64,000 nt of DNA from Gemmatimonadota bacterium (GTDB taxonomy: Bacteria > JAAXHH01), in assembly GCA_009837395.1 (NCBI GenBank), contig VXTP01000030.1, positions 207,211-271,210 on the forward strand. Reading direction: 5' to 3'. Position numbers and translations under genes: made by a program. Positions 5,745-58,046 of the stretch are shown piece by piece; the first letter of the stretch is position 1, and every line of letters begins with the position of its first letter. The notes under the pieces were generated by a model that saw nothing but the letters and a program-made list of their open reading frames with translations, was not told the DNA's origin and did no database searches.

Positions 5745-6305
5745 TCACCCCGGCGGCGGCGCCACGTGTTCCAGCCCGAACGCTTCCCGCAGGCGGTCCA
5801 TTTCCCCATTCAGTACATCAGGATCGGACGTATCGGCGGGCATGCGCCGAAGCAACCGGTCGGAAGCCTCGAAGAAGCGGTCCAGTCCCGCGGGCGTGCA
5901 GATCAGCATAATGCGTGCCGGATCATCACCGTCGTTCCAGAACGAATGGGGTTTCCATCCGGGAACCGTGACCATCTCTCCTGCTTCGAGCACGAAGGCG
6001 CTTTCGTGGAGGAACTGGAAGGTCAGGGCGCCTTTGACGACCAGGAACATCTCGATGAAGGCATGCCGGGTGAATACGGGCGGCGGGCTGTGGGGAGGTT
6101 CGACGGCCTCGATGACCGTGACGCGATCCTCCGTGGCGGAACCCGGGGTCATGACCCGTACGTTCTGGCCCATGAGCGTCCTGAGCCAGGGGCCTCCGGG
6201 ACTTGCTGTGCCTCCGGGACTTGTTGTGCCTCCAGGACCACCGATACCTCCGGGATTTCCGGAACTACCAAGACCACCGGGGCTTCCGTTGCCGTCGCCG
6301 ATCAT
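5745..6305 (-). CDS. Cupin-domain protein with Gly-Pro-rich N-terminus
   Basis: The 186-residue protein has a single cupin (about residues 60-150): the stretch FTRHAFIEMFLVVKGAL, then EAGEMVTVPGWKPHSFWN, where His and Glu would bind metal. The ATG at 6305 overlaps the stop of the upstream large lipoprotein gene as ATGA, so I prefer it over the longer reading frame that runs inside that gene. The first 40 residues are a low-complexity tail (PGG repeats) encoded by 18-bp tandem repeats. Function unknown; many such small cupins bind small molecules or act as isomerases. Coupling suggests co-expression with the pseudo-peptidase/permease. Confidence 0.75.
   Translation of the reverse strand: MIGDGNGSPGGLGSSGNPGGIGGPGGTTSPGGTASPGGPWLRTLMGQNVRVMTPGSATEDRVTVIEAVEPPHSPPPVFTRHAFIEMFLVVKGALTFQFLHESAFVLEAGEMVTVPGWKPHSFWNDGDDPARIMLICTPAGLDRFFEASDRLLRRMPADTSDPDVLNGEMDRLREAFGLEHVAPPPG
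6193..6264. repeat. 18-bp tandem repeat, 4 units, in cupin gene
   Basis: Units begin CCTCCGGGACTTG at 6193 and 6211, with two diverged units at 6229 and 6247. In the gene they encode PGG-containing six-residue units in the N-terminal tail, outside the cupin fold. Confidence 0.85.
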
Positions 6306-9300
6306 GTGGATACCTGTCCCGCGCCTTCCGCACCACCCGCGACAGCTTCGCCCGTCGTTGCCGCGATCATCTCCCGCCCTTCGTCCGCGTAGACCGTCTT
6401 GACCTCCTGGTCCACGGTGCGCCATACCAGGAACTGCTTACGCAAAACGTTCAGGAAACGCCGGTTGAGGCGCTGCCATGAGTCCACGTCGCCGCTCAGG
6501 CGGTAGATGTGCACCCACACCGCGTACAGGTCGTGTTCTTCCTCGGCGGGGGTCGCGTGCAGGGACACGCGTTGGCTGACTCCCGTGTCGTAAGGCGCCA
6601 GCCAGGTCTTCATGCTGATTTCGTAGGTGGACGCGTCCGAAACGGCACCGGCCGCCCGTTCCTGGTCCGGACCGGCGCTGGCAGCCTGGTCGACCGGCCG
6701 GCCGGCTTCCGAAGCAATACCATTCTTCCCGGTCAGCGCCACCTCGTCGGTCATGAAGCTGCCCAGGGTGCTCTCGCCGTACGACTCGAAGAACCGCGTC
6801 AGGTAGGCGCAAAGGCCGAGTGTCTCCTTCCGGCTGATGGTGAAGGGGAACTCGAAACGCCAGTCGTCTCCCTCGGGCTCGGGGAATGACCACTGCCGGT
6901 TGACGTCCGGTACGGCCATCTGGGAGGCCTGGCGCGCGGGGTAGATCGTCGACAGCATGACCACTGCCATGACCATGGCCGTGGAGGCCACGGCGGAGAG
7001 GGACGAGTAGTTCAGCGTGAGTCCCGCGAGCAACTGGTACTCCGTGATGCCCCGGGCCACGGTCTGGCCGATGAGGTAGCCGGACATGCCCCCGATGACG
7101 GCGTACATGGCCGCCTCCGCCATGAAGAGCGCGCCGATATGGGCCGGCGCCAGGCCCACGGCGCTGTATACCCCGATCTCGCTGAAGCGCTCGTAGACGG
7201 CGTTCATCATGGTATTCAGGATGATGAGGGCGGCGACGACCATGGGGATGAACAGGTTGCCCAGGCCGGACAGGGAACTCAGGGACATGGCGCTGTGCAC
7301 GGCGACCTCGCCGTCCACGGAGGCCACCACGGGGATCCCCAGGCGCTGCATGAAACGGTCCAGGCGGGCTTCGGCCGCTTCATCCGTCGGGAACCTAACC
7401 GCCACGGACCGCAGGCTTCCGCCGAGGTCGTTCACGTAGGCCTGCGGCGCGAGGATCAGGTTCGCCGCCGGCAGGTGCTCGAACCGGACCATTTCCACCG
7501 GTTCTTCCTCGTAATCCATCAGGGCGATTTCCGTAAGCAGATCTCGGCCGGTCGCCGTGTAATCGACGGGGGTGAGCGGTTCGCCGTCCAGGTCGGTGAT
7601 CCGGTCCATCACGGCCGAATCGAATATGCCGATGACCGTAAAGGGCTTGCCGAAGATGCGGATCTCCCGCGGCCCGCCGCCCCCTTCCGCTATCACTGGC
7701 CCGCCATCCCCGTCCGTCATCCCCAAGTCACCTTCCGCCATGCCCAGAAGCCGCACCATTTCGGTGGGTATGATACACACGTCGCGCTCGTCGCCTTCGA
7801 ACCACCGGCCCGACACCAGGGCCCGGTCCAGCCCGCTGACCACCCGCTCGTCCGGCATCACGCCCAGGATGCCCGAAGCGTAGGTGGAATGGATGGCCCC
7901 GTCGGCCCCGGCATGCTCCGCCTTGATATAGGTTTTCACCCCGGGCGAGGCGCCGGCGTACCAGGACCTCGGCACGATGGTGATGCCCCGGTCCTCGGCC
8001 TCGGTCGACCCGAATTCGGAACGCACGTACTGGTGCGTCTGCTTCTGGAGCGGCGCCCAGTTGGGGTTCCGGACGAGGAAACCCGTGTAGGCGGCCTCGG
8101 TGTCGGTGCTCACCTTCTGGATCCGGAGAAAGGTCTGCACGGAAGTGAAGGAAAGCACGGTGAAGACCAGCAAAACCAGCGTGGCGCAGGTCAGCAGCGT
8201 ACGGGCCTTGCGCTTGCGCATGTTGCCGATGCCGAGGGCGAAGGCCGTGCCCAGGGCGCTCGAGCGCCGTACGTCGGTGGTCTGGACGCTGTGGGCGTGC
8301 TGCCGGACCTCCCGCATGGTCTGGCTGAACCGCTGGGAGATGAGCCAGATGACCACGGCGGCGAGTACAAAGGTCATGAAGGCGAGGAGGACGATGTCGG
8401 GCGCCGTGGTGATCTGGAAGGCCGGGTGGGTGAAGCGCAGCACCCCGTACGCCGCGAGGAAGATGCCGGCCGTGGCGCCGATGCGCTTGTAGATATTGGC
8501 GAAACCGAAGAGCAGCCGCTCGAGGGCGTAGGCGAAGGGGATCACCAGCACCATGTAGAAAAGCACGCCCTCCACGACGTCGTTGGCGGTTCCCGTCGCG
8601 TCGGGGTAGGCCCTGGACTCGTATCCCCACGCGGCGCGGGCGTACTTGATGAACCGGTCCCACTGCAGGGCCTGCCGGGCCGTTTCGGCCAGGTCCAGCA
8701 GGCGGCCGGACTCGCGGTGGAAATCGTCCAGCCGGGTGTTGTTGACGCCCACGGACCTGAGCGCGCCGATCCGCGCCTCGTCCAGGTGCCACATGTCGCG
8801 CGCCACCTGGTAGGAAGTAAGGGGAATGGCGCCGATACCCGAATCGAATCCGACCCCCTCGGGGTTCGCTTCGTCGGCATTGGTCAGGATCAGGCGGCGG
8901 CCGAACAGGCCGGTGGACATGGTGACCTTGAACCGGCTGTCGGGCGGCGTGAAGACGACGGCCGTGTCCTCCTCGTAGGAAAAACCCGTGGTCCAGCCGG
9001 CTTCCTGGAAGGTTATGCCCCATTCCAGGGGAGGATTGCCCGATTCGTCCAGCACCACGGCCTCGTTGAGCCGCGTCAGGAACCGGGGGTCCACCAGGTC
9101 GTAGAGGTTGGTCGCGTCGGACCGGAAGACCACCGTGGGTTTTTCCTTGTCCACCCAGTCCATCGTGATTTCGAGCGGGTAGGCGCCTTCGCCGTAGGGA
9201 CCCCGGTCCGGCGCATAGATGATTTCCCCCGTCTCGGGGTCCATGACAAAGCCTTCCGTCGGGTAGGTCCGGGCTGCCTCCAGCGCGGTGCTCTCGGCCA

Positions 9301-11980: not shown

Positions 11981-13171
11981 TCATGAAGCCCGTACGGCCG
12001 AGGCGTCGATGGCGGCATGCACCGTATCCCCGACGGTGATGCCCATACCGGCGAAAGACGCACGGGCCACGTGGACGGTCAGTCGAAGGCCGGACGGCGC
12101 ATCGGCGCGCGGGCCGACGTCCATGTGCGGACCAGACGCCGCGTCCGAGTTCGGGCCAGCCTCCGCATCCAGGTGCGGGCCGGCGTCCACGTCCAGGCGT
12201 ATGCGGTCTCCGTCCACCGCCGCGGCGGTCACGACGCCCGTGAGCGTATTCGCGGCGTCCGGCGTGCGCGGCGGCCTTGCCGGCGGCCTCGCCGGCGGCC
12301 TTGCCAGCCGGATTTCCTGCGAAGAGATGACGATGTGGGCCGGTCCGCGCGCGGTCGTGTCCGATCGCAGGGTCACACCGCCGTCCAGTTTTACGACCGG
12401 ACCGTCGGCAGATTCCTCGATGCGGCCCCTGAAGACGTTCTCCGGTCCCTTCTCGAGCATCCGCCCGTCGCGCATGGTCAGCACTTCGTCGGCGATGCGA
12501 TAGGCCTGGTCGTACTGGTGTGTCGAAAGCACGACGGTCATGCGCCGCTGGCGGCACGTCTCCGCGAGAATCGCCTCGATCTGCTTCCCGTGCGCCGCGT
12601 CCACGCTGGCCGTGGGCTCGTCGAGCAGCAGGACGTCGGGGTCCGTGACCAGGGCCCGGGCGAGTCCCGCGCGCTGCGCTTCCCCGCCCGACAGGCTGTG
12701 GGCGGGACGGTGGGCGAATTGCCGGAGGCCCACCTTGTCCAGCATGCCGGTCACGCGTGCTTCGATGGCCTCCTTCGCCATGCCGCGGAACCGCAGGCCG
12801 GACGCCACGTTATCGAATACGGTGGACCGGAACAGGTACACGTGCTGCATGAGCAGCGTGACGCGGCGGCGGTACTGCCGGCAGCGGCCCGGATCGGCCC
12901 CGTTCACGGGCCGGCCTTCGAAGAGGATCCGGCCCTCCTGCGGCAGGGTCAGCAGGGCGAGTATGTTCAACAGCGTGGTCTTGCCCGATCCGTTCGACCC
13001 GTAGACGGCATAGGTCTTACCGGCGTACAGGGCGAGGTTTTCGACATGCAGATGAAACCCGGAACCGTACCGGTGCGCCAGGTGCTCGCCCACGATAATC
13101 GGACCGGCCGTCATCGGACCGGCCGTCATCGGATCGGCCGCTATCGGATCGGCCGTCATCGGATCGGCCAT
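11981..13171 (-). CDS. tupC: Tungstate/molybdate-type ABC transporter ATP-binding protein with TOBE-like tail
   Basis: The 396-residue protein has Walker A GSNGSGKTT, signature SLSGGEAQRAGLARAL, Walker B VLLLDEPTASVD and the switch His in VVLSTHQYDQA. The C-terminal 90 residues (GLRLTVHVARASFAGMGITV) fit a TOBE/molybdate-binding-like regulatory domain. The start ATG shares one base with the stop of the permease gene (TGATG). Three repetitive insertions are present: an N-terminal MADPMTADPIAADPMTAG tail (15-bp repeats), ARPPARPPARPP before the TOBE region (12-bp repeats) and a DxxGPxxD-rich stretch. These are outside the nucleotide-binding core. The gene symbol rests on the TupB-like partner. 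Confidence 0.8.
   Translation of the reverse strand: MADPMTADPIAADPMTAGPMTAGPIIVGEHLAHRYGSGFHLHVENLALYAGKTYAVYGSNGSGKTTLLNILALLTLPQEGRILFEGRPVNGADPGRCRQYRRRVTLLMQHVYLFRSTVFDNVASGLRFRGMAKEAIEARVTGMLDKVGLRQFAHRPAHSLSGGEAQRAGLARALVTDPDVLLLDEPTASVDAAHGKQIEAILAETCRQRRMTVVLSTHQYDQAYRIADEVLTMRDGRMLEKGPENVFRGRIEESADGPVVKLDGGVTLRSDTTARGPAHIVISSQEIRLARPPARPPARPPRTPDAANTLTGVVTAAAVDGDRIRLDVDAGPHLDAEAGPNSDAASGPHMDVGPRADAPSGLRLTVHVARASFAGMGITVGDTVHAAIDASAVRAS
12270..12305. repeat. 12-bp tandem repeat, 3 units, in ABC ATPase gene
   Basis: The unit GGCGGCCTTGCC occurs at 12270, 12282 (one mismatch) and 12294. In the gene it encodes the ARPP repeats of the linker between ATPase core and C-terminal domain. 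Confidence 0.85.
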
Positions 13172-13172
13172 C
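13098..13172. repeat. 15-bp tandem repeat, 5 units, at start of ABC ATPase gene
   Basis: Five units of ATCGGACCGGCCGTC, with few mismatches, span the start codon of the ATPase gene and encode its MTAGP/MTADP-type N-terminal tail. The last unit overlaps the stop of the upstream permease gene. Confidence 0.9.
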
Positions 13173-13863
13173 AGTCGTCGAACCCCTGCAGCCAGTGAAA
13201 GAGAATGTTCGCGCCGAACGCCGTGAGCAGCAGGATGATCCCGAGGGCGATGGCCAGGCCGAACTCCCCCTTGTTGCTCTCCAGGGCAATCGCCGTCGTC
13301 ATGGTCCGCGTGCTTCCCTTGATGTTGCCGCCCAGCATCATGGCCGCGCCCACCTCGGCGATGACCCGTCCGAAGGCGGCTACCACCGCCGCCATGATGC
13401 CGAACCGGGCCTCCGAAATGAGGGTGCGGGCGGTCTGGGCCGTCGTCGCGCCCAGCGTAAGGGCCGTCTCCGAGATCCGGGAATCCACGGCACGAAAGGC
13501 CGAGAGGGTGAAGGCGGCCACGATGGGCAGGGCGAGGAGCGTCTCGCCGATGATCATGGCGCCCGGTGTATACAGCAGTTCCATGAAGCCGAGGGGGCCG
13601 CGCCGGGAGATCAGGGAGTAGACGAAGAGGCCGATCACCACGGTCGGCATGGCCAGCAGCGTATTGAGCACCGTGGTCACGAACCGCTGGCCCCGGAACC
13701 GGCGGGTGGCGAGCAGGTAGCCCGCGGGCAGTCCCATCACGGAAGCCACCAGGATCGCGGACACCGCGACGAACACGGAAACGCCGACGATGGTATACAC
13801 GCCGGATTCGCCCGATATCAGCAGGCGGACCGCTTCCTGTAATCCATTGTACAGGTATTCCAT
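13171..13863 (-). CDS. tupB: Tungstate-type ABC transporter permease
   Basis: The 230-residue protein has five or six hydrophobic helices and the ABC permease coupling motif in SETALTLGATTAQTARTLI. The run FGRVIAEVGAAMMLGGNIKG followed by TRTMTTAIAL is the hallmark of TupB/WtpB-like tungstate (and some molybdate) permeases. It is the first gene of a minus-strand unit with the ATPase. No periplasmic binding protein (TupA/ModA) is encoded in the window, which is unusual because tupA normally precedes tupB. The 238 bases upstream are a divergent spacer with no gene. Confidence 0.8.
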   Translation of the reverse strand: MEYLYNGLQEAVRLLISGESGVYTIVGVSVFVAVSAILVASVMGLPAGYLLATRRFRGQRFVTTVLNTLLAMPTVVIGLFVYSLISRRGPLGFMELLYTPGAMIIGETLLALPIVAAFTLSAFRAVDSRISETALTLGATTAQTARTLISEARFGIMAAVVAAFGRVIAEVGAAMMLGGNIKGSTRTMTTAIALESNKGEFGLAIALGIILLLTAFGANILFHWLQGFDD

Positions 13864-18937: not shown

Positions 18938-20218
18938 GTGACGACAAAAACAGGTTCGGCCCTCTCGTACACCCGGCTGCTCAGGGAGAACCGGACCTAC
19001 CGGTTCGTCTGGCTGTCGCAGGTCGTATCCAACGCGGGGGACTGGTTCAATACCATCGCCGTGCTGGGCCTGACCCTCGCCCTGACCGGCTCCGGCCTCG
19101 CCCTGGGCATCGTCACGATCTGCCAGATGCTGCCCCCCTTCCTGATGACCCCGCTGGCCGGCGTCGTCGCCGAGCGGTACGACCGCAAGCGGGTGATGAT
19201 CACCGCCGATATCCTCCGGGCCGGCGTCGCCCTGGGATTCCTGCTGGTCGAAACGGCGGACGACGTCTGGATGCTGTACCTCTTCATGGCGCTGCTGTCC
19301 GGCCTGCAGCCCTTCTTCGACGTGACGCGCACGGCCGCGCTGCCGAGCATCGCCCGTGGCAAGGCGCTGCTCGCGGCCAATGCGCTGTCCAGCACGACCT
19401 GGGCCGCCATGCTGACCATCGGCTCTGCCGTGGGCGGCCTGGTGGCCGATCACCTGGGCCGGTCCGCCGCTTTCCAGCTGAATGCCTTCAGTTTCCTGGT
19501 GTCGGCGGTTTTCGTGGCCCGGATCGCCATTCCCGCCGCGTCCGGGGCGGGACAGCCGGTACGGTTCCTCTCGGATTTCCTTGAGGGCATGAAGTACATC
19601 GGCCGCGACCGGCCGACACGGGTCTACCTGCCGGGCAAGGCCACCTGGGGACTCGCCGGGGGCGGCGCCGTGCTGCTCTACGCCGTGTTCGGGGGACAGG
19701 TCTACCGCGCGGGCGACACGGGCATCGCCATCCTGTACACGGCCCGCGGAATCGGCACGCTCCTGGGCGCCGTGTTTATCAAGTTCTTCGACACGATCCG
19801 GCTGGGGCAGTTGAGGACGGGCATCCTGGTCGGACTCATCGGCTACGGCGCCTTCTTCATCCTGTTCTCGCAGGCCCCGTCCATCTGGCTGGCCGCGGTC
19901 TGCATCATCCTCGCCGCCGCGGGCAGCATGGTGATGTGGGTCTATTCTTCGCTGGGGCTTCAACTCGTGGTGGACGAAGACTACCGCGGGAGGGTGTTCG
20001 CCGCGGACCACGGCCTGTTCACCCTGGCGTTCTCCATTTCGACCCTGGGGACGGGCCTGCTGCTGGACGCCCTGGCGGCCCGCCTGGTGGCCTTCATGGC
20101 GGGGGCGGCCGGCATCGTGATCGTCGTCGCCTGGTACCTCTTCGCCCGCCGCATTCCCTTGGGCGGAATCCATCCCGGCCAGGATGACGGCCAGGGAGGA
20201 GACGGCCAGGACGGCTAA
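18938..20218 (+). CDS. MFS transporter (MFS_3/EntS-like)
   Basis: The 426-residue protein has twelve probable membrane helices and the family opening RTYRFVWLSQVVSNAGDWF, typical of the EntS/MFS_3 branch of drug or siderophore exporters. The loop 2-3 motif is ERYDRKRVMI, corresponding to the MFS GxxxDRxGRR motif. It begins with GTG at 18938, with AGGT a short distance upstream. The last residues are low-complexity (DDGQGGDGQDG). Substrate unknown; no binding protein or regulator lies beside it. Confidence 0.85.
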   Translation: MTTKTGSALSYTRLLRENRTYRFVWLSQVVSNAGDWFNTIAVLGLTLALTGSGLALGIVTICQMLPPFLMTPLAGVVAERYDRKRVMITADILRAGVALGFLLVETADDVWMLYLFMALLSGLQPFFDVTRTAALPSIARGKALLAANALSSTTWAAMLTIGSAVGGLVADHLGRSAAFQLNAFSFLVSAVFVARIAIPAASGAGQPVRFLSDFLEGMKYIGRDRPTRVYLPGKATWGLAGGGAVLLYAVFGGQVYRAGDTGIAILYTARGIGTLLGAVFIKFFDTIRLGQLRTGILVGLIGYGAFFILFSQAPSIWLAAVCIILAAAGSMVMWVYSSLGLQLVVDEDYRGRVFAADHGLFTLAFSISTLGTGLLLDALAARLVAFMAGAAGIVIVVAWYLFARRIPLGGIHPGQDDGQGGDGQDG

Positions 20219-20281: not shown

Positions 20282-21142
20282 GCGTTCGAGCCGTTCGAAG
20301 TCTTCGATGTTCTGGTCCACGAAGGCCTTGATCTTGAGGTGTCCGTCCCGGAGTTCCAGGCCGTCCAGGGTCTTGGGAATGAAGAAGAAAACCCGCTGGA
20401 AGAACCCCGCCACGCCCCGCTTCCTTCCCGACAGGCCCTCGAAGTCGGTGTACCGCGCCCATTGCAGTTCGTCGTGCAATGCCAGCTTCACCAGGTAACT
20501 CGTCCGGGAACCTCCGTCATCGAAATACGAGGTCTCGGCGCCGTGGACGATCACATCGGCGTTCAGGATGTCCCGGTCGAAACGGAACGTGTAGTTCATG
20601 TCGTAGAGCGCGCGGATATGGACCAGGAAATCGCCTGACCGGGCGGCGTCGGGGCTGAAGAAGAGGTACGAGACGTGGTGAAGCGGGAAGGTGAGCCCCA
20701 GGGAAAACCCCTGCTTCAGGGCTTCGTCGATCGCCTCCCCGCCGGCGTAGAGCGGCAGGTTTCGTTCGGCGATCCACCGGGCCAGCACCACGTTGACCCG
20801 CAACAGCGTGAGCGTATCCTGTTCCGCGGCGGTAAACATGTCGATTACGTCCGCCCCGTTCAACCGGAGGGCCGTGGAATCGCCGGCGAAGGCCCGCAGA
20901 CCCGGGGGAACGGGCTGCGGTTCGCGCTGTTCCAGTCCGGCCAGGAAGGCGTCCAGGTGGGGTGTGTCCGGTTCGAAGGCCTTCAGATCTCCCGGAGGAG
21001 CAAGGGCCAGCCAGGCGGCGCTTAGCCACGCGAGCGGGAGCGCCCTGGCGCTTAGCCACGCGAGCGGGAGCGCCCTGGTCCTTAGCCACGCGAGCAGGAG
21101 CGCCTTTTTGTAACCTCCACACCCTCGGAATGCGCTCCGCAT
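20264..21142 (-). CDS. Secreted protein of unknown function with repeat-built signal sequence
   Basis: The 292-residue protein begins with a hydrophobic N-terminus made of ten-residue repeats: LLAWLRTRA, LPLAWLSARA, LPLAWLSAAW, ended by ALAPP. This looks like a signal peptide or anchor lengthened by duplication of a 30-bp unit. The mature part is mixed alpha/beta without motifs that I recognise; LHHVSYLFFSPDAARSG and RVFFFIPKTLDGLEL are its most distinctive segments. AGGGGA lies eight bases before the ATG. It converges with the MFS gene and precedes nothing on the same strand within 120 bases. Possibly a periplasmic or surface protein. Confidence 0.6.
   Translation of the reverse strand: MRSAFRGCGGYKKALLLAWLRTRALPLAWLSARALPLAWLSAAWLALAPPGDLKAFEPDTPHLDAFLAGLEQREPQPVPPGLRAFAGDSTALRLNGADVIDMFTAAEQDTLTLLRVNVVLARWIAERNLPLYAGGEAIDEALKQGFSLGLTFPLHHVSYLFFSPDAARSGDFLVHIRALYDMNYTFRFDRDILNADVIVHGAETSYFDDGGSRTSYLVKLALHDELQWARYTDFEGLSGRKRGVAGFFQRVFFFIPKTLDGLELRDGHLKIKAFVDQNIEDFERLERYHVRR
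21021..21104. repeat. 30-bp tandem repeat, 2.8 units, in signal-sequence region
   Basis: The unit starting CTTAGCCACGCGAGCGGGAG occurs at 21021, 21051 and 21081 (last copy partial), almost identical each time. It encodes the repeated ALPLAWLSAR segment of the secreted protein. Confidence 0.95.
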
Positions 21143-22544: not shown

Positions 22545-24419
22545 TCAGACCGCGGTATGCCCCGCATCCGGCCGGCCGGCGCTGGGCGCGGACTGCCGTT
22601 TGCGGTATGGCAGTCGGTGACTCTTCCGATACTCCCACTGGAGCCGGTGATTCTCCTTCTCCGTCGATATGAAATCCCAGGGAAGCGACTGCAGGTCCGC
22701 CATGTCTCCGAGATAGCGCGAGGTATCCATCCCCAGCTCCGCCGCGGCGCGTTTCCAGTCGCCGTCCCGCCGCGCGGTCTCCATCAGGAATCCACTCAGT
22801 TCCCGGCCGCCGCGGGACAGGATGGCCTCGAAATAGGCGGACTTAAGGCTCTCGTGCTTGACGTCCACCCCCGCCGTGCCGCGCAGGGCTTTCTGAATGC
22901 GGTTCAACTTGCGCTTGACCTCTTTGGGAGACGCCATGGGACTCCACTGGAAGGGCGTTAACGCTTTCGGCACGAAGGGGTTAATGCTCAACCGCAGCCG
23001 CCCGCCCGGTTCCCCACACTCCCGCTGCAGGCGGGCAAGCCGGCGCGTCATCTCGATGAGTTCCTCGATGTCCGCGTCGGTCTCCGTCGGCAGGCCGACC
23101 ATGTAGTACACCTTGAGGTGCTTGATGCCCTTCTCCAGAATCCTTCGTGCGCCGGTCAGGATTTCTTCCGAAGATATGGGCTTGTTGATCGCCTTGCGAA
23201 GCCTTTCCGACCCGGCCTCGGGCGCGATGGTCATGGTACGCAGCCCCGTCTTCAGCATCAGCCGAAGCAGGCTGTCCGGGACCAGGTCGACCCGTACCGA
23301 CGAAACGCCCACGCGGAGACCGGTTTCTTCCAGGCCCGCACAGAGTTCGTCGAGGTGGGGATAGTCGCACATGGCCGAGCTGACCAGGCCCACGGCCTTC
23401 AGCCCCTCCTTGCCGTCACGCGCCAGGGACGCGTTCTTGGACCGGATGACTTCGAGTATGGTGTCCGGCTTCAGGGCGCGGAACTTCGGATAGACGTAAC
23501 TCACGGCACAGAAACGGCACCGGCGGGGACACCCCCGGGAGATCTCGATGAGCAGCATGTCGCCGAACTCGGTGTCGGGCGTAAGGACGGCGGAATGGGC
23601 GGGATAGTCCTCGAAATCGCGCACCTGCTGCTTGGCGATCCGTTCGACGGGCGCGCTTTCCGCTTCGGCCGCCGAGGCATCGCATCCGGTGTCCGGGGCA
23701 TCGCTACCGGTGTCCGGGGCATCGCTACCGGTGTCCGGGGCATCGCATTCGAAATCGGCATTTGAGGCCATCCCGGCATCCGTGACCGCCCCAATTGCCG
23801 GCGCCCCCTCCCGCTCACCCGGGGAAGCGGTCTGCAGAGAAGGCACATACATGCCCGCCAGCGACATGGTACGGGCAAGATGCTGTTCCCGGTCCAGTCC
23901 CTGGTCCGCGAGGTAGCGGTCTGTGTAGGCGTAAGCCGCCTCTTCGCCGTCGCCTATGACCATCACGTCGGCAAAATCCGCCAGGGGCTCCGGGTTGATG
24001 TAGGTAATCGCGCCTCCGATCAGCACGATCGGATCGAAGCGCGTCCGGTCTTCCGCGAGCACCGGCACGCGGGCGAGTTCCAGGATGCGGACCAGGTTGG
24101 GATAGTCGTTTTCGAAGGAGACGGAGAAGGCCACGATGTCGCATGAACCGAGCGGAAGCCCGGATTCGAGCGTAACCAGCGGTTTGCGGGACCTGGACAG
24201 GGCTTCCAGGCCGGAAGGTTCCGGGAGAAAGGCGCGTTCGCAGACGACGTCGTCCCGTTCGTTGAGGTGACGGTACATGGTCTGGAACCCCAGGTTCGAC
24301 ATGCCCAGGTAGTAGGTATTGGGATATACCAGGGCGATTCGAACGGCCTTGCCGCCCGGATTCTTGTATATGGTCCCCCGCTCGCGGGCGAGGGTCTCCG
24401 CCAGGAATTGTCCGAACAT
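22545..24419 (-). CDS. Radical SAM protein, TIGR03960-like, with N-terminal cobalamin-binding-like domain
   Basis: The 624-residue protein starts with a Rossmann-like domain as in B12-binding radical SAM enzymes (IALVYPNTYYLGMSNLGFQT, IVLIGGAITYINPE, VIGDGEEAA). The radical SAM cluster motif is SRGCPRRCRFCAVS (CxxxCxxC). EAGSERLRKAINKPI and YYMVGLPTETDADIEEL are the usual barrel motifs after it. Between the domains is an insert of three SDAPDTG repeats, encoded by 21-bp tandem repeats, placed in a linker. The C-terminus resembles the TIGR03960 family of unknown function. GGAAGGG precedes the ATG. Substrate is unknown. Confidence 0.85.
   Translation of the reverse strand: MFGQFLAETLARERGTIYKNPGGKAVRIALVYPNTYYLGMSNLGFQTMYRHLNERDDVVCERAFLPEPSGLEALSRSRKPLVTLESGLPLGSCDIVAFSVSFENDYPNLVRILELARVPVLAEDRTRFDPIVLIGGAITYINPEPLADFADVMVIGDGEEAAYAYTDRYLADQGLDREQHLARTMSLAGMYVPSLQTASPGEREGAPAIGAVTDAGMASNADFECDAPDTGSDAPDTGSDAPDTGCDASAAEAESAPVERIAKQQVRDFEDYPAHSAVLTPDTEFGDMLLIEISRGCPRRCRFCAVSYVYPKFRALKPDTILEVIRSKNASLARDGKEGLKAVGLVSSAMCDYPHLDELCAGLEETGLRVGVSSVRVDLVPDSLLRLMLKTGLRTMTIAPEAGSERLRKAINKPISSEEILTGARRILEKGIKHLKVYYMVGLPTETDADIEELIEMTRRLARLQRECGEPGGRLRLSINPFVPKALTPFQWSPMASPKEVKRKLNRIQKALRGTAGVDVKHESLKSAYFEAILSRGGRELSGFLMETARRDGDWKRAAAELGMDTSRYLGDMADLQSLPWDFISTEKENHRLQWEYRKSHRLPYRKRQSAPSAGRPDAGHTAV
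23677..23751. repeat. 21-bp tandem repeat, about 3.5 units, in radical SAM gene
   Basis: The unit begins GCATCG and ends CCGGTGTCCGGG; copies start at 23677, 23698 and 23719, with a partial copy at 23740. The second and third copies are identical. It encodes the SDAPDTG linker repeats. Confidence 0.92.
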
Positions 24420-27474: not shown

Positions 27475-27497
27475 CGTCTATGCCTCATATGGCGGCC

Positions 27498-31277: not shown

Positions 31278-31336
31278 GCGGCCCGGGCGGCGCGGTAAGG
31301 GCGGTGGCAGCGGCCCGGGCGGCGCGGTAAGGGCGG
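31278..31336. repeat. 27-bp direct repeat in spacer before binding-protein gene
   Basis: Two identical 27-base copies (31278-31304 and 31310-31336), each with GCGGCCCGGGCGGC and GGTAAGGGCGG, are separated by five bases. They lie in the spacer between the arabinofuranosidase and binding-protein genes, just past the arabinofuranosidase stop. No coding role. Confidence 0.9.
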
Positions 31337-31342
31337 CGCGGC

Positions 31343-32862: not shown

Positions 32863-32907
32863 GTTTACACTACCTGGCTTTACGCCACCTGGCTTTACGC
32901 CACCTGG
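32863..32907. repeat. 15-bp tandem repeat, 3 units, at RNase HIII 3' end
   Basis: CTTTACGCCACCTGG occurs at 32878 and 32893, with a diverged copy at 32863. The last copy covers the stop codon of the RNase HIII gene (32895-32897); the others lie just beyond it. Confidence 0.88.
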
Positions 32908-38694: not shown

Positions 38695-39552
38695 TCAAGG
38701 CCTATGGGGCTTCATGCGGGGCTGCTTACGGGACGAACGTTCTTTCTCCGGCGGTGGTGGAGGTGGCGGCTTCACCTCGCGCGGTTCGTCCCTCGGTGGC
38801 GGCGGTGGAGGCCTGTCGGGTGGCCGGTTATCCTTCGGAGGGGACGGCGCCACGATCGGCGGTTCATCCTTGGGTGTCGAAGGACTGACCGGTCGCCGGT
38901 CATCCCGTCGTGGCGGAGGTTTCGCCGTCGGCCGGTTGTCCCGTCGAGGCGATCGATAGACGGTCGGCCGGTCATACGGCCGGCGGGGCCGGTACACGGT
39001 CGGCCGACCGTAAGACGAACGGGGTCGAAAGACGGTTGGCCAGCTCTCCCCTTGATGGGGTATTACAAAGTTTGACAGGTCATCCGAATGCCTGATCGCA
39101 ATTGCGTCGATCCTGAGCGTGTACGCTTCGTTACTCCGGTCCGCGTCCGTTTTCTCGCCGGAAAAAAACCGGGCCACGTTTTCGAGTTCGGAATACAGGG
39201 AGACTTCCTCTCTGGTGACCTCCGCTTTGACGATTAGCAGCCTGTTCGCCCCGATTTGCGATGCTCTCAGGCGCAACTTATTGACGAGGGCCTCCTTCGA
39301 CGTCCCCGTGACGTGAATGGCCGCGACGCGGATGTAGGAGCCGGGTCCCAGTTCAGACATGTTGAAGATGGTCTCCACGTCGAAGTACCCGACCGATGGA
39401 AACGCGCCTGGGCTGTCCAGCCAGATCACCGTCGTTTCCGATCCGTCTGACGGGTCAGTACGGCGCGAGTCGCCGGGCCCGCCTGAACCGAGCTGGCTGT
39501 AAGACGAGCATCCGGCGAAAATCATGGCAAATGCGAATACCAGACAGCGCAT
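38695..39552 (-). CDS. Lipoprotein with Pro/Arg-rich repetitive tail
   Basis: The 285-residue protein has a lipoprotein signal (FAMIFAGC, Cys15). Residues about 35-160 form a small folded domain with VIWLDSPGAFPSVGYFDVET and YTLRIDAIAIR. The C-terminal 125 residues are disordered: three units of RPTVYRPRRPYD type (36-bp repeats at about 38935-39043) followed by Pro runs. It is likely anchored in the outer membrane with the tail reaching through the periplasm or outside. GGAGG lies seven bases before the ATG. I do not recognise the folded domain. Confidence 0.65.
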   Translation of the reverse strand: MRCLVFAFAMIFAGCSSYSQLGSGGPGDSRRTDPSDGSETTVIWLDSPGAFPSVGYFDVETIFNMSELGPGSYIRVAAIHVTGTSKEALVNKLRLRASQIGANRLLIVKAEVTREEVSLYSELENVARFFSGEKTDADRSNEAYTLRIDAIAIRHSDDLSNFVIPHQGESWPTVFRPRSSYGRPTVYRPRRPYDRPTVYRSPRRDNRPTAKPPPRRDDRRPVSPSTPKDEPPIVAPSPPKDNRPPDRPPPPPPRDEPREVKPPPPPPPEKERSSRKQPRMKPHRP

Positions 39553-43779: not shown

Positions 43780-43900
43780 AGCATGATGGGAAATAGCGCG
43801 TAACGCGCCTTGCTTTCGTGGGCCGAAATGACTACATTGCCTAGCGATTCATTTCGTGATCCGATCATGACCCGACCCGCCCTCGCGCTTCGCTGCTGCC

Positions 43901-43940
43901 GCAGGATATACGCCGCTGTCGCGGGATATACGCCGCTGTC
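43901..43940. repeat. 20-bp tandem repeat, 2 units, upstream of PhoX-like gene
   Basis: Two copies of the 20-base unit GC(A/G)GGATATACGCCGCTGTC, with one difference, lie 30 bases before the start of the PhoX-like gene, in the spacer. Confidence 0.9.
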
Positions 43941-43971
43941 GCCAGAAAATCAATAAAGGAGATCCACGAAC

Positions 43972-47374: not shown

Positions 47375-47450
47375 GTCCGAGACGTACAGGCCGCCGAGAC
47401 GCACTGGCCTTCAATGACGCTCTGACCAGCCGAGACGCATCGGCCTTCAA
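47375..47450. repeat. 22-bp repeats in spacer after dehydrogenase
   Basis: GCCGAGACGCA-TGGCCTTCAA-type units occur at 47393-47414 and 47429-47450 (two differences), with a partial copy at 47375-47392. They fill the spacer between the dehydrogenase and the second aldolase gene; no coding role. Confidence 0.8.
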
Positions 47451-50177: not shown

Positions 50178-50215
50178 GTCTGCCGGATAGTTTTCAAAAG
50201 GGACGGGCGCGGGCC

Positions 50216-50297
50216 AGTGTATACCAAGGGTTAGTGTAATCCGCGGGTTAAGTGTATACCGCGGGCGAAGCATATACCGCGGGCAAGTGTATACAAT
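50216..50297. repeat. About 18-bp imperfect repeats containing GTATAC in spacer
   Basis: Units such as GTGTATACC, GTGTATACCGCGGGCGAA and CATATACCGCGGGCAA follow one another, about 4.5 copies, each with the palindrome GTATAC or ATATAC. They lie between the two flavin oxidoreductase genes, ending just before the leader of the second. They could be operator sites or simple duplications. Confidence 0.75.
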
Positions 50298-52365: not shown

Positions 52366-54438
52366 ATGAAACGCGCTGTACGCATCGCCGCACGATTCGG
52401 ACACGCCATCCTCCGTATGGTGAAGCAGCTGGCCCCGGATACCTGGACGAAGCGCTGTATCTACGTGGGGCTGGTCATGGCCGCCGGAGTCATTCTGGTC
52501 CTGGGCACCTGGCAGGGCGTGGCCACCTGGCTCGGCTGGCCGGCGATCGCCCTCTTGACCGCTGGCATTTTCTACTACACGTGGAAGGCCTTTTCGTGGT
52601 TGCGGGACCATCTGCTGTGGAAAGTCCGGAATCGCATCATCGTCGTTTTCCTCTTCGCCGGCATCGCGCCCCTGTGTATCGCCTCTTCGATCAGCATACT
52701 CGTCGGATGGCTCTGGATCGGGACCCTCGGTACCAACCTGGTCACCCGCCATATCGAAGAAACCGTCGACCGGCTCGATCACATACCGGTCGATATGCAA
52801 CTGGCCCTGCTGAGGACAGCTTCGGAAGACAGGCCGCCTTTCGCCGGAATCGTGGACGAGATCCTGCGGGACAATCCCGATCTTACCGGTCTGTCGATCA
52901 GCGTATTCGAGGATGGCCGGCCGTTGCTTGCATCGCCCCCCTTCGATACGCCGGAATCCCTCCCGGACTGGCTGCTTCGGGAAAACCATTTCGCCGAAGT
53001 GGTTTACGACAGCCTGGCCGACCGCCGGTCCGAAGGCCGGTCCGACGGCCGGTCCGACGGCCTTTCCGCGCTGTCCTTTCGCGCCGGCACCGCCATCGAC
53101 TTCCGTGGACGGAACCTGTACGTCCTCTCCTACAAGCCGCTGGGGGTAGATTACCGGAAGAAGATATGGGAAGAACTGGGCACGGAGGTCGCGTTTCGGT
53201 CCGGACCGGGCGATTACGAAGACGTCACCGTCTATGAGTCGGCACCTTCGGAAGTGGAAAGGTCCCAGTTGCCGATCTGGGGCGCGCTGCACGTGCCGTG
53301 GGCCGCCTCGTTCGCCGTCCGGTCCTGGAACCGTGGGGTGAATACCTTTGCGATCCTGGGCCTGGATCTTGATCCGGCACACATTTTCGAAGCGACCGTT
53401 ACCGGAGACATGCTGCTGTCCGGTTTTCCGCCGCTGTTTGCCGTAGTCATCGTTTTGTGCGCGGTATTCGTCTGCTTCGAGGTGATCTCCTTCATGATCG
53501 GGCTGCTCGTCTCACGGCGGATTACCACGGCGGTGCGCGGGCTGTATGAGGGTACGGAAGCCATTCGCGCCGGCAGGACGGACTTTCGCGTGGAAGAAAA
53601 GGCGCGGGATCAGCTTGGCGAACTCGGCCGCTCTTTCAACACCATGGCGCAGAGCATCGAGATGCTGATGGATGAAGAAAGGGAAAAGGAGCGGATCGAA
53701 ACGGAACTGTCCATGGCCCGGGAGGTGCAGGCCCGTTTCATACCCAACGTGCCGCCGCAGCGGGGTCCCCTCGAACTGGCCGGCGCCTGGATCCCCGCCC
53801 GCACGGTCAGCGGCGACTATTACGACTTCATCGAACACCGGGACCGGATGCTGGATATCGTGGTCGGCGACATCTCGGGAAAGGGCATATCGGCTGCGCT
53901 CATGATGGCCGGTCTGCAGGCCTCCTTGCGGTCCCAGGCGCTGGACCCCGCGCTGGAAGGAAGCCCGGACCGTCTGTCCAGGCTGATGTCCCGCCTCAAT
54001 GTCTACCTGTGCCACAGCACGGCGCCGGAGCGATTCGCCACGGTATTCATCTGCAGTTACCACATGGAGACGTCCCGGCTCAATTACTGCTGCGCCGGGC
54101 ACAATCCACCCCTGCTCCTGCGCAACGGCAGCGACGATGTCGCCCTGCTCGAAAGCGGCGGTTACCCGATCGGGTTGTTTCCGGAAGCGGAATACGAAGA
54201 TTCCGCCGTCAGCGTCGATCCGGGGGATCTCTTCGCGGTCTACACCGACGGCATCACGGATGCCCTCAATCGGGAGGATGAAGACTTCGGGGAAGCCCGC
54301 CTTCGCGGGGTCCTTTCGCGAAACCGCGAACGGTCCAGCGAGGAGATCCTGGAGCGGATCCTCGCCTCGGTCCGCGACTTCTCGCTCGGCGTGGAACAGT
54401 TCGACGACCAGACCGCCGTCATCGGCCGCGTGCGTTAG
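52366..54438 (+). CDS. HAMP-containing PP2C-type (SpoIIE) serine phosphatase
   Basis: The 690-residue membrane protein has three hydrophobic segments near residues 25-120, an extracytoplasmic domain (about 120-350), a further helix, then HAMP (SRRITTAVRGLYEGTEAIRA), a coiled coil (MDEEREKERIETELSMAREV) and the SpoIIE phosphatase: GDYYDF, VGDISGKGISAALMMA (metal Asp/Gly motif), AGHNPPLLL and YTDGITDALN. Such proteins act in partner-switching control of anti-anti-sigma factors. The extracytoplasmic part carries RSEGRSDGRSDG, from 12-bp repeats. The ATG at 52366 has GGAG ten bases upstream. No sigma or anti-sigma gene is visible nearby. Confidence 0.9.
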   Translation: MKRAVRIAARFGHAILRMVKQLAPDTWTKRCIYVGLVMAAGVILVLGTWQGVATWLGWPAIALLTAGIFYYTWKAFSWLRDHLLWKVRNRIIVVFLFAGIAPLCIASSISILVGWLWIGTLGTNLVTRHIEETVDRLDHIPVDMQLALLRTASEDRPPFAGIVDEILRDNPDLTGLSISVFEDGRPLLASPPFDTPESLPDWLLRENHFAEVVYDSLADRRSEGRSDGRSDGLSALSFRAGTAIDFRGRNLYVLSYKPLGVDYRKKIWEELGTEVAFRSGPGDYEDVTVYESAPSEVERSQLPIWGALHVPWAASFAVRSWNRGVNTFAILGLDLDPAHIFEATVTGDMLLSGFPPLFAVVIVLCAVFVCFEVISFMIGLLVSRRITTAVRGLYEGTEAIRAGRTDFRVEEKARDQLGELGRSFNTMAQSIEMLMDEEREKERIETELSMAREVQARFIPNVPPQRGPLELAGAWIPARTVSGDYYDFIEHRDRMLDIVVGDISGKGISAALMMAGLQASLRSQALDPALEGSPDRLSRLMSRLNVYLCHSTAPERFATVFICSYHMETSRLNYCCAGHNPPLLLRNGSDDVALLESGGYPIGLFPEAEYEDSAVSVDPGDLFAVYTDGITDALNREDEDFGEARLRGVLSRNRERSSEEILERILASVRDFSLGVEQFDDQTAVIGRVR
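53026..53061. repeat. 12-bp tandem repeat, 3 units, in phosphatase gene
   Basis: CGGTCCGAAGGC, CGGTCCGACGGC and CGGTCCGACGGC follow directly, encoding the RSEG/RSDG repeats in the extracytoplasmic domain. Confidence 0.92.
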
Positions 54439-57400
54439 AGCGGTCGATCGACCCGGGCCGCCAGGTCCGCTTCCTCCTCGACTTCGCCATCTGCCGTCTG
54501 GTCCGCTTCCCCCACGGCTTCGACGTCCACCTTCACCCCGTAGGCGTATTGCTCCAGCCGGCAGAACACGTTGACCAGACGCATCTGTTCCACGGTCCTG
54601 CACGGGGCCTCCAGCAACCGTGGATTGAGGATGACGATGGACAGGCACTGTGCCCGGGAGACGGCCACGTTGAGCCGGTTCCGGCTATACAGGAACTCCA
54701 TGTGCCTGGGCAGGTCCTCGGCCGTGGACGTCACCATGGAAACGAGCACGACGGGCGCCTCCTGCCCCTGGAACTTGTCCACCGTGCCCACGCGCGCGCC
54801 GTCGGGCAACGCCGACCGCAGGTGGTTGACCTGCACGTTGTAAGGCGAGACCACCAGGATGTCCGCTGCGGTCAGCGAACGGGTCCGGCCGCGGCCGTCC
54901 GCGAAGGACTGCCCCAGCAGTTCATCGTAGCAGGCCCTGACGACCTTGCCCTCCGCCTCGCTCTTCTGGGAACATCCCGCGTGATCCGCCGCGATCATGA
55001 CGATGCCCTCTTCGGGCAATTCCGTTTTTTCAAGCAACAGCCGGCGCTCCGCAGTTGCGGCATGGTTCTCCAGCCTTCCGTCGTAGAAGGCGCCGGAAAC
55101 GAACCGGCATATACTCGGCTTGAGGCGCCAGGTCGTCCCCAGGAAGATCCCGCGGTCGGCCGGAATGGTATCCTTGCCCTGCAGGAGGTATTCCAGGACC
55201 GACATGCCGGCCTCGCCCGGATGGGTGCCCTTCATGGGTTGGCCCAGCTGCATCTGGTCACCCACCAGGACGATGTTTTTGGTTGATGACGACATGCCCA
55301 CGACGTTGGCGGTCGACACCTGTCCCGCTTCGTCGATGAAGAGGTAGTCCAGGCAGTCGACGAGGTGTTCGTCGGAAAACAGCCACGCCGTCCCGGCGTA
55401 GAGGTCCGCGCCCGGTCCGATGTCCCCGGTTCTTTCGACGTTCGTTACGAACTCTCCTTTGTAGACGCTGTCCGGGTTGCCGCCGCTGCTCTTCTTGATG
55501 CCCCGGAACGACACGCCCCGGTCCCGCGCGACTTCAACGACCATGTCCAGCAGGTTGTGGATGGCCTGATGCGCATTGGACGTAATGCCGACTGTGTGCC
55601 CTCGCTCGATCAGCGCAACGATGAGATGACCACTCGTGTAGGTCTTGCCGGCGCCGGGCGGTCCCTGGATGAAGAGATAGCTGTCGTCGAGATGCGCCAC
55701 GGCATCCAGATAACCGTCTATTCCTTCGCGGCCGGGCTCGACGATCGGCGCGCCCGGGGTGCGGCCCTTGATCCGCGGGACCGCCCGGCGAAGCAGATCC
55801 ATGGCGGCCCGCGGGGTCTTCCCGTCCCGGATGAACCGCTCCGCGTGACGGTAGATCCCCGCCCTGATGACCTTCGCGTCTACCGGTCCACCGGGCCCGA
55901 TCGAAGCATTCGAAGGCAATGGCTGGACGCTCGGTCCCTGCCTGACCCGGACGATCCCTTTCGACTCGTCGATTTCCTGGATCGAACCGGCCCTGTCCAT
56001 GGTCTGCGCGTTCGCGACCTGGTCGCCGGTCTTGAGCTTGAAGTCCTGGGGCGGGAACCGGAAGGTATAAATGGTCGATCTCTTGACCTGGACGGGTGGA
56101 TCCCCCGACTTCTCCAATCCCCCCAGACACTCCACGTCCTCGATCAGTTCATCCGTCGTCTTGTCGCGGCGTTCGAAGGCGGCCCACCACTCTGGCTTGG
56201 CCTCCCGGTTGTGGAACTCCAGCAGGTCCGCGATGCGCCGGCCGTCTTCCGGTGGGTCCTCCTCGAAAATGCCCAACCTGCGCTGGTATTCCTCGTACTC
56301 GATCTCCCAGTCCTTGCGCCCGGGCGACGCCGGGGTTGCCGCAGCGGCCTCCCCGCCGCTATCGTCCCCGCCGCTTTCGCGTCCGCTGCTTTCGTGCCCG
56401 CCGTTTTCGTCCCCACCGAACCAGTACGCGCGAGCCGGACGGAGCGACACCAGCCAGTCGCGCAGCTTCCACGTAGATACGCAGTCTGCTTCGTTGTACT
56501 CGGCGATTTGTCGCAGGAGATCGTCCTCGCCGGTCTCCTGCCAGCGGTTGTATACGACGACGCTCTCCGCGGCCGTCGCCACCTCCCCGCTGCGCTGCAT
56601 GTAAAAAGTCTCGAGGTTCTTCAGCGAGTAGCGCGGCTCGGAGGTACGGATGCTCTCCCGCACGACCAGGTAGAGGTCGACGAACCGATTACGCCGCAGC
56701 AGGTTGTCGAGTTGCTCCTGGCAGGTTCCGTAGCGGCCCGCCAACCGTTTCAGGGCCGTGGTCTCGTAGTGGTTGTAGTGGTAGATATAGGCCGAAGGAT
56801 ACTGCCCCAGATGCACGTCCAGAAAGGCCATTAAATCCTCGAAGGCCTTCTTCTCCTGCCCGTGGTTATGGGCCCAGAAGGCCTTGAAGGACGGACGGTC
56901 ATCCGTAACGGTGACCGCTCCGAAGAGGTATTCCAGGCCGTTGGGATAGAGCGGATCGCCTTCCATGTCGAAGAACAGGTCGCCCCGGTCGGGCGCGGGC
57001 AGCCGCGACAGACCCTTCCCTTCGTCGTAGTCGAGCCGTTCCCACGCGTCCTTTCCCGTTTTAGCCTTCCCGTACTGCAACGCGGCCTGGGCGCGAAGCC
57101 GGGCAAGCCCCTCCTGATTCGTGTCGGCGATTTGCTTTTCGGCATCCAGTTGAGCGAGATCGGTCAACGTGTTGATGCCGGCGTTTCTCAGCGCGGCAAT
57201 CTGGGTCTTGCGGATATTGGCGACGCGGGACAGATGGTCGTCGTCCTCCCAGCGCCGGGCGCAGAGGTCGCGCCAGTGGCAGTACGTGCAATGGGCGCAG
57301 GGATCGGGATTCGTGTCGGCGGGAGGCCCGGCGGTCCATGACTCGAAGCGCCGGCGCGCCAGGGCATAATAGTAGTAGAAATCATCCACCCTGAAACACT

Positions 57401-57926: not shown

Positions 57927-57966
57927 GGAAGGTTACGTCTCCCCTCGGTGATTGCAGGAATGCGAT

Positions 57967-58046
57967 CAACGCCGCGCGCCGCTACTCAACGCCGTTCGGC
58001 GCCACTCAACGCCGTGCGGCGCCACTCAACGCCGCGCGCCGCTCCA
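57967..58046. repeat. 20-bp tandem repeat, 4 units, between helicase and spermidine-synthase-like genes
   Basis: Units starting CAACGCCG at 57967, 57987, 58007 and 58027 each run 20 bases and end in CACT or CCA. The last units cover the stop codon and last residues (ARR) of the spermidine-synthase-like gene. The period is not a multiple of three because most of it is in the spacer. Confidence 0.9.

What the first reader, a model, noticed from the sequence alone, without database searches (positions are those of the whole stretch)
6193..58046. Recurrent in-frame minisatellites inside unrelated genes
At least ten genes carry short tandem repeats of 9-36 bp: cupin (18 bp), ABC ATPase (15 and 12 bp), secreted protein (30 bp), radical SAM (21 bp), secreted protein (9 bp), RNase HIII (18 bp), lipoprotein (36 bp), phosphatase (12 bp), nuclease/helicase (15 bp), ThyX tail (15 bp). 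Inside genes the period is always a multiple of three; in spacers it is 13, 20, 22, or about 18 bp. The units differ in sequence, so this is local slippage, not a mobile repeat. It suggests a genome tolerant of replication slippage, with linkers and tails evolving by it and possibly differing between strains.
Basis: partly seen in the sequence, partly recalled or inferred. Interest (0 to 1): 0.7.

Follow-up and report, generated by a model that had tools for sequence, protein, structure and literature searches.

The report
In-frame DNA repeats across one genus
In one genus of uncultured, probably sponge-associated bacteria, short stretches of DNA have repeatedly been copied head to tail, and inside genes nearly all surviving copies keep the reading frame, so protein linkers and ends differ between species, often by whole repeat units.

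Summary
Tandem Repeats Finder (score >=50) gives 25 arrays in the window: 14 in called genes, all with periods divisible by three, and 11 in spacers, 3 of 11 so. Codon-order shuffles average 1.1 in genes; spacer shuffles 0.1-0.2. In 484 kb of this genome there are 119 arrays (24.6 per 100 kb), against 30 in 450 kb of controls (6.7) and 0-8.3 per 100 kb in four outgroup genomes. Eleven sibling species are held; copy numbers often differ by whole units (ABC ATPase: 9 of 9 anchored relatives by multiples of 15 bp). Most arrays lie in linkers, termini or signal peptides. Two of the 14 gene arrays are conserved protein sequence, and the ThyX one is probably not coding. The suggested cause fails: MutS and MutL are present with intact motifs, and MutS itself carries two arrays. 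One genetic correlate is loss of SbcCD (absent in 12 of 12 genus genomes, present in 4 of 4 outgroups), but that is one evolutionary event and hairpin data do not support it. Best reading: slippage-born minisatellites, unusually dense, filtered by reading frame. Known in kind; variation between strains untested.

The parts
6192..6238 (-). 18-bp x 2.6 array in the Gly/Pro-rich N-terminal extension of a cupin ORF (5745-6425); my gene caller starts the gene at 6173, so coding is likely but not certain
   Evidence: segment 9 aa shorter in G003
12118..12197 (-). 24-bp x 3.3 degenerate array between the ABC domain and the TOBE domain of an ABC ATPase
12269..12305 (-). 12-bp x 3.1 array (ARPP repeats) in the same linker; 9 of 9 anchored relatives differ by multiples of 3, 6 of 9 by multiples of 12
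13098..13173 (-). 15-bp x 5.1 array at the N-terminus of the ABC ATPase, starting at its ATG; 9 of 9 anchored relatives differ by 0, 15, 30 or 60 bp
20181..20210 (+). 15-bp x 1.9 array in the C-terminal tail of an MFS transporter; tail variable among relatives
21017..21104 (-). 30-bp x 2.9 array in the hydrophobic N-terminal region of a secreted protein; segment 50, 40 or 30 aa in this genome and six siblings, not in such steps in four more distant siblings
23672..23747 (-). 21-bp x 3.6 array in the linker between Radical_SAM_N2 (44-193) and Radical_SAM (291-457); linker hypervariable in the relatives, not in whole units
25799..25838 (+). 9-bp x 4.4 array (GRT/GRS repeats) at the N-terminus of a protein with no Pfam family
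31130..31171 (-). 18-bp x 2.3 array in the signal peptide of a solute-binding protein (SBP_bac_1); length varies among relatives
33557..33650 (-). 18-bp x 5.2, 98% matching array coding (GGGNGS)n ahead of the RNase_HII catalytic domain (162-367)
53007..53062 (+). 12-bp x 4.7 array in a SpoIIE-type phosphatase ahead of the HAMP domain; 4 of 4 anchored relatives differ by -24 or -36 bp
56350..56418 (-). 15-bp x 4.6 array between RNase_H_2 (317-493) and the helicase part of a nuclease-helicase
35017..35049 (-). 15-bp x 2.2 array in the 5' part of the ThyX ORF, probably upstream of the real start
27482..27512 (.). 13-bp x 2.4 spacer array; 5 of 8 non-zero length differences are multiples of 13
32864..32907 (.). 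15-bp x 2.9 spacer array, variable among relatives
43891..43942 (.). 20-bp x 2.6 spacer array
57966..58042 (.). 20-bp x 3.8 spacer array, not recognisable by eye in 2 of 2 anchored relatives
62625..62671 (.). 13-bp x 3.6 spacer array; the 2 anchored relatives are too poorly aligned for a clean comparison
2869..2903 (.). 18-bp x 1.9 spacer array
31285..31341 (.). 14-bp x 3.8 irregular spacer array
38966..39004 (.). 20-bp x 1.9 spacer array
47377..47409 (.). 17-bp x 1.9 spacer array
50208..50265 (.). 17-bp x 3.4 irregular spacer array

Best explanation
These are slippage- or duplication-born minisatellites. A segment of about 9-36 bp is duplicated head to tail (inferred: strand slippage or misaligned synthesis during replication or repair). 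Further misalignment between copies then adds or removes units (inferred from unit-sized differences between sibling species, which are shown for several arrays). In spacers arrays of any period are found. Inside genes nearly all have periods that keep the frame, and most lie where a protein should tolerate added residues: linkers between domains, N- and C-terminal tails and signal peptides; the filter by selection is inferred from this pattern. The lineage is rich in arrays (about 4 to 5 times the controls), and its indels per substitution are about twice those of one control genus. Mismatch repair is present, which is no contradiction, since loops of this size are generally outside its range (recalled). 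What makes this genus rich is not established.
For: Excess over codon-order, synonymous and dinucleotide shuffles. Frame: 56 of 60 in genes against 22 of 59 in spacers. Unit-step differences: ABC ATPase 9 of 9 anchored relatives, phosphatase 4 of 4, signal-peptide segment in steps of 10 aa in this genome and six siblings, RNase 6 of 9 multiples of 18 and 9 of 9 of 3, 13-bp spacer 5 of 8 non-zero differences. Units unrelated to each other. Of 31 gene arrays with score >=60 in 420 kb outside the window, 22 lie outside Pfam matches (one overlaps an edge by 6 residues), 3 are undecided (beyond the printed stretch of a domain matched in several stretches), 3 are in proteins without a family, and 3 lie inside a match. 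Density 24.6 per 100 kb against 6.7 in nine control stretches and 0-8.3 in four outgroups. Own against G003: 6 of 27 well-flanked 6-120-bp indels are recognisable tandem copies; at random positions about 0% are.
Against: Turnover is only modestly raised: 25 tandem indels per 18953 substitutions in four non-overlapping sibling pairs (picked from the pairs run) against 5 per 9087 in two Sinorhizobium pairs that share one member, Fisher P = 0.08; all 6-120-bp indels 105 against 24, P = 0.0006. The share of indels that are tandem is no higher than in the control: 13-37% and 6% for own against G004 and G008, against 17-30% in Sinorhizobium. Several arrays (12118, 23672, 56350) differ between species by lengths that are not whole units. 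Half of the window's gene signal survives synonymous shuffling (7.0 of 14), so protein-level repetitiveness contributes. The birth of an array was not observed, and no tree was built to count events.
Confidence: 0.85

Rival explanations
1. Loss of the SbcCD (Mre11-Rad50-like) nuclease on the stem of this genus lets structured or looped slippage intermediates survive, and this is why the genus, and not its sister genera, is full of minisatellites.
For: SbcD (TIGR00619) over the cut-off in 0 of 12 genus genomes and in 4 of 4 outgroups (two of the family, two of the order). Full-length SbcC-like matches (262-336 bits, below NCBI's cut-off) in 4 of 4 outgroups and in 0 of 12 genus genomes. Density of arrays with period >=9 is 22-39 per 100 kb in the genus samples and 0-8.3 in the outgroups. 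MutS, MutL, ExoVII, RecJ, RecA and the PolA 5'-nuclease are not missing from the genus in this way.
Against: One clade, so one event. On average the arrays have no more hairpin potential than GC-matched segments (mean z 0.11 in 176 gene arrays, -0.09 in 158 spacer arrays), although 16% and 24% fall in the lowest tenth of energies, which leaves room for a subset; inverted repeats are rarer in the genus than in outgroups and controls, not commoner. Caulobacter did not ring in the same SbcD search, so lacking SbcD is not peculiar to this genus; its repeat density was not measured. Outgroup G001, which has SbcCD, has many arrays of 7-8 bp.
Confidence: 0.12
2. Mismatch-repair loss (mutator lineage).
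For: None found.
Against: MutS in 14 of 14 family genomes (short open frames of 407 and 514 aa in G012 and G003 were not followed up), MutL in 12 of 12 genus genomes; MutS GDFYE and Walker A and MutL DQHAAHERVLFE present in this genome (motif meanings recalled); arrays of period 5-8 nearly absent in the genus (3 in 1.28 Mb).
Confidence: 0.03
3. The arrays are selected protein features (adjustable linkers, Gly-rich tails) rather than by-products of a mutational process.
For: The same linkers are repetitive in several siblings with different units (radical SAM, RNase, MutS); half of the gene signal is kept under synonymous shuffling.
Against: Spacer arrays are denser than gene arrays (60-155 against 14-23 per 100 kb) and cannot be protein features; DNA-level repetition exceeds what the protein needs (14 against 7.0).
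Confidence: 0.1
4. Chance similarity or conserved protein motifs picked up by the repeat finder.
For: True of 2 of 14 window gene arrays (9286-9320, 58217-58256): no length change in 9 of 9 and 4 of 4 anchored relatives.
Against: Shuffles and length variation for the other arrays.
Confidence: 0.03

Closest known systems
Bacterial intragenic VNTRs / minisatellites (e.g. those of M. tuberculosis)
   Same: Tandem units in genes, often in frame, with copy number differing between relatives. An in-frame bias of intragenic structural variants in M. tuberculosis pe/ppe genes (17 of 25) is reported in PMC12817950 (passages read).
   Different: Here housekeeping enzymes (RNase, ABC ATPase, radical SAM protein, MutS) are affected; variation is shown between species only; density over the sampled genome is high.
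Small variable segments in E. coli, S. aureus, S. pyogenes (PMC2884548)
   Same: Frame-preserving intragenic variable segments (35-55% of microdiversity loci are intragenic and do not disturb the frame; passages read).
   Different: There 2-4% of E. coli loci were minisatellites (units of 20 bp or more, 90% identity). My counts use other thresholds (13-37% of indels, and 17-30% in the Sinorhizobium controls), so the two cannot be set side by side.
Constant-size tandem repeats of Bacillus (PMC8161180)
   Same: Many tandem arrays of unrelated sequence in one genome; arrays with periods in multiples of three usually code for amino-acid repeats (outline and first part of the results read).
   Different: There two thirds of arrays have a period of 51-53 or 20-21 nt; here periods spread from 9 to 72 bp in this genome, commonest at 15 and 18.
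Phase-variable contingency loci
   Same: Slippage at tandem repeats (general knowledge).
   Different: Those typically have units that shift the frame; in-frame units here cannot switch a gene off by frameshift.

Membership tests
Minisatellite / VNTR | Head-to-tail copies of a unit of about 9-100 bp beyond chance | tested here: met
Minisatellite / VNTR | Copy number differs between related genomes in whole units | tested here: met
   between species for the ABC N-terminal, phosphatase, signal-peptide (in-group) and, in part, RNase and 13-bp spacer arrays; not met for 12118, 23672, 56350
Minisatellite / VNTR | Copy number differs between strains of one species | not testable with these tools
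   one genome per species held
Mismatch-repair-deficient mutator | MutS or MutL absent or broken | tested here: not met
Mobile or dispersed repeat family | Units share sequence across loci | tested here: not met
   2 of 1124 size-matched unit pairs >=80% identical; 118 distinct units in 119 arrays
Constant-size bacterial tandem repeats | One or two fixed periods | tested here: not met
   periods 9-72 in this genome
Phase-variable contingency locus | In-gene unit length not divisible by three | tested here: not met
   56 of 60 divisible by three
SbcCD-dependent repeat instability | SbcCD absent | tested here: met
   (0 of 12 genus genomes; not all first-look candidates were scored in several genomes)
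SbcCD-dependent repeat instability | Arrays enriched in hairpin-forming sequence | tested here: not met
   mean z near zero, with 16% (gene) and 24% (spacer) in the lowest tenth
SbcCD-dependent repeat instability | Independent SbcCD losses also gain arrays | not tested
   a search centred on another phylum was not accepted

The most novel reading that the evidence does not exclude
Loss of SbcCD at the base of this genus turned a genome with few arrays (partly of 7-8 bp, as in two of its outgroups) into one with abundant 9-36-bp minisatellites that now remodel linkers of housekeeping proteins, including the linker of MutS itself between its ATPase domain and its C-terminal part.
Probability: 0.1. 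Interest if true: 0.65.

Novelty: new member of a known kind. Interest (0 to 1): 0.33.

Why it matters
It gives a natural series (this genome and up to eleven siblings, same gene order in the stretches compared) of linker and signal-peptide lengths changing, often by whole repeat units, in housekeeping enzymes. That makes it possible to ask how linker length evolves and whether array density follows the loss of a particular DNA-repair nuclease. It also warns that length differences between proteins of this group can be tandem copies rather than annotation errors.

Tried and rejected
Missing mismatch repair: rejected. Loss of the PolA 5'-nuclease (found in 15 of 16 genomes, missing in sibling G012), RecJ (16 of 16), ExoVII (15 of 16, missing in outgroup G015), RecA (16 of 16): rejected as the difference between genus and outgroups; MutL is missing only in outgroups G013 and G014. 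Hairpin-driven slippage: array hairpin potential equals the GC-matched background on average. A shared mobile unit: rejected. Sinorhizobium sp. C101 as a control pair: no alignment in the stretch taken; the stretch still counts as a control for density. Test of the SbcCD idea in another phylum: not possible. Rows dropped: arrays of period under 5; arrays of period under 9 and, where stated; indels whose 20-bp flanks were under 70% identical (a 50% version is also printed there). One search failed to show the RNase linker in 6 of 9 relatives and the cupin segment in 4 of 8; re-read the RNase linker for 4 of 5 sought, and one search gives DNA lengths for 9. Gene calls come from my own codon-usage caller, so counts differ slightly between (14 gene, 11 spacer arrays in the window; 13 and 12). 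In one search, 11 of 20 requested stretches of this genome did not exist because the contigs were too short, so the sample leans to the larger contigs. Three of the nine control stretches (L194, L196, L197) are homologous to each other.
Full report
What the window is. The window lies in a 3.8-Mb, 47-contig genome. The nearest named relatives of its radical SAM protein are seven metagenome-assembled genomes labelled Candidatus Latescibacterota or Gemmatimonadetes (82-91% protein identity). A sponge setting is an inference from isolate names of some relatives and from a paper on sponge-associated Latescibacterota (PMC12993501, passages seen); no call gives this genome's source. Eleven other species of the same genus are held, with two more genomes of the family and two of the order. 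In the stretches I took, the siblings keep the window's gene order; for some siblings the stretch covers only part of the window (G006 8 kb, G011 20 kb, others 39-80 kb).

Observation. TRF at score 50 gives 25 arrays in the window. The 14 in called genes all have periods divisible by three; of 11 in spacers, 3 do. In 20 shuffles of codon order the gene count averages 1.1 (maximum 3); in 20 shuffles of synonymous codons it averages 7.0 (maximum 10); spacer shuffles give 0.1-0.2. In 400 kb elsewhere in the genome, 42 gene arrays (38 divisible by three) and 44 spacer arrays compare with means of 4.7 (codon order) or 19.3 (synonymous) and 2.7-2.8 over 6 shuffles of each kind. So the excess is not confined to the window, which is about 1.7 times denser than the rest of the sample (39.1 against 22.4 per 100 kb).

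Frame. In this genome 56 of 60 gene arrays and 22 of 59 spacer arrays have periods divisible by three (Fisher P = 3e-11); over the genus sample it is 176 of 188 and 67 of 166, but the genus rows include orthologous arrays and are not independent. Gene density is 14-23 and spacer density 60-155 per 100 kb in this genome. A general process filtered by frame and by tolerance of the protein would give this (inference).

Comparison with siblings. I anchored the flanks of each array in up to 11 siblings and aligned the proteins. The 15-bp array at the start of the ABC ATPase differs by +15, -15, 0, 0, -15, -30, -60, -60 and -60 bp in the 9 anchored siblings. The 12-bp phosphatase array differs by -24 or -36 in 4 of 4. 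The signal-peptide segment is 50, 40 or 30 aa long in this genome and six siblings; in four more distant siblings it is 28, 29, 23 and 43 aa, which does not fit. The RNase (GGGNGS)n linker differs by multiples of 3 in 9 of 9 and of 18 in 6 of 9. The 13-bp spacer array at 27482 differs by multiples of 13 in 5 of 8 non-zero cases. The arrays at 12118, 23672 and 56350 sit in hypervariable linkers where lengths are not whole units. The ThyX array varies by lengths not divisible by three and is probably upstream of the true start. The arrays at 9286 and 58217 never change length and are plain protein sequence.

Where in proteins. In the window the variable gene arrays lie at N- or C-termini, in signal peptides, or outside and between Pfam domains. 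In 420 kb elsewhere, of 31 arrays with score >=60 in 25 genes, 22 lie outside Pfam matches (one overlapping an edge by 6 residues), 3 are undecided because the domain matches in several stretches of which only the best is printed, 3 are in proteins with no family, and 3 are inside a match, one of them a MORN repeat protein.

Is the genus unusual? For periods of 9 or more, density at score 50 is 39.1 (window), 22.4 (rest of own sample), 30.8 and 25.4 (siblings) per 100 kb, against 6.2, 2.7, 8.3 and 0 in the four outgroup genomes and 4.8 in five control stretches. With four Sinorhizobium stretches added, controls hold 30 arrays in 450 kb (6.7); the two small stretches L009 and L010 of distant phyla held none. 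The controls are few, mostly from plasmids, partly homologous to each other, and not a survey; outgroups G001, G013 and G014 have lower GC (0.51, 0.57, 0.48), G015 does not (0.63). Turnover between siblings is only modestly higher than in Sinorhizobium: tandem indels 25 per 18953 against 5 per 9087 substitutions (ratio 2.4, P = 0.08); all 6-120-bp indels ratio 2.1, P = 0.0006. The share of indels that are tandem copies is not higher than in Sinorhizobium (13-37% and 6% in two wider pairs, against 17-30%). E. coli K-12 against AVS0171 showed 0 indels of this size in 460 substitutions. So what stands out is the number of standing arrays and the overall indel rate, not the kind of indel.

Cause. 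Mismatch repair is present: MutS in 14 of 14 family genomes, MutL in 12 of 12 genus genomes, with key motifs in this genome. MutS here carries 27-bp and 9-bp arrays just after domain V (ends at residue 809). In the alignment segment of residues 801-871, this genome has 71 residues, G010, G005 and G007 56-62, G011, G006, G008 and G004 28-31, and the two outgroups G001 and G013 16; G002 is cut by a contig end, G009 is misaligned, and G003 and G012 were not fetched. RecA, RecJ, ExoVII and the PolA 5'-nuclease are found in this genome. The one difference between genus and outgroups among the eight gene families searched is SbcCD: no SbcD over the cut-off in 12 of 12 genus genomes (one weak 38-bit partial match in G002), present in 4 of 4 outgroups; no full-length SbcC in 12 of 12, full-length matches in 4 of 4 outgroups (all under NCBI's cut-off, which 1 of 14 control genomes passes). 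This is a single loss on a single branch, by parsimony. The arrays show no extra hairpin potential on average (a subset may: 24% of spacer arrays lie in the lowest tenth), and inverted repeats with arms of 10 or more are rarer in the genus (3.8 per 100 kb) than in outgroups (6.7-10.7) and controls (16.8). Three literature searches listed no paper whose title or start of abstract links SbcCD to this class of minisatellite; I opened none of the listed papers for this (one search showed 12 of 106). I therefore keep SbcCD loss as a lead, not as the explanation.

Relation to what is known. In-frame intragenic minisatellites and frame-preserving variable segments are known in bacteria: M. tuberculosis (PMC12817950, passages), E. 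coli and others (PMC2884548, passages), Bacillus (PMC8161180, outline and first part of the results). Two library searches that paired Latescibacterota with repeat terms showed no paper on tandem repeats in that phylum among the rows listed (15 of 1,435 and 8 of 2,619; listings only), so absence from print is not shown. The finding is a new, dense example of a known kind. What is untested is variation between strains.

Noticed in passing
L137:12366-15176 (own genome, contig C23): The mismatch-repair protein MutS carries two in-frame arrays (27 bp and 9 bp) in a Gly/Asp-rich stretch after domain V; the aligned segment has 71 residues here, 56-62 in three siblings, 28-31 in four and 16 in the two outgroups.
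   Followed up: partly
genus genomes G000, G002-G012: SbcD and full-length SbcC are missing from 12 of 12 genomes of the genus but present in 4 of 4 outgroup genomes.
   Followed up: partly
L077, L127, L128, L164-L168 (G001); L131-L133, L157-L159 (G015): Two outgroup genomes carry 7-8-bp tandem arrays, mostly in spacers (12 and 9 arrays of period 5-8); the genus of the window has 3 in 1.28 Mb.
   Followed up: no
own and sibling stretches, 1.28 Mb: Perfect inverted repeats with arms of 10 or more are rare in the genus (3.8 per 100 kb) compared with outgroups (6.7-10.7) and controls (16.8), perhaps because of few intrinsic terminators.
   Followed up: no
window 33557-33650: The RNase linker (GGGNGS)n resembles the flexible Gly/Ser linkers used in protein engineering (the comparison is from general knowledge).
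   Followed up: no
window 13098-13173: Four of the five units of the ABC ATPase array hold an in-frame Met codon, so the array also multiplies possible start codons.
   Followed up: no
G002:C39:90805-92198: G002 has neighbouring weak partial matches to SbcD and SbcC (frames of 385 and 928 aa), possibly a different metallophosphatase-ATPase pair.
   Followed up: no
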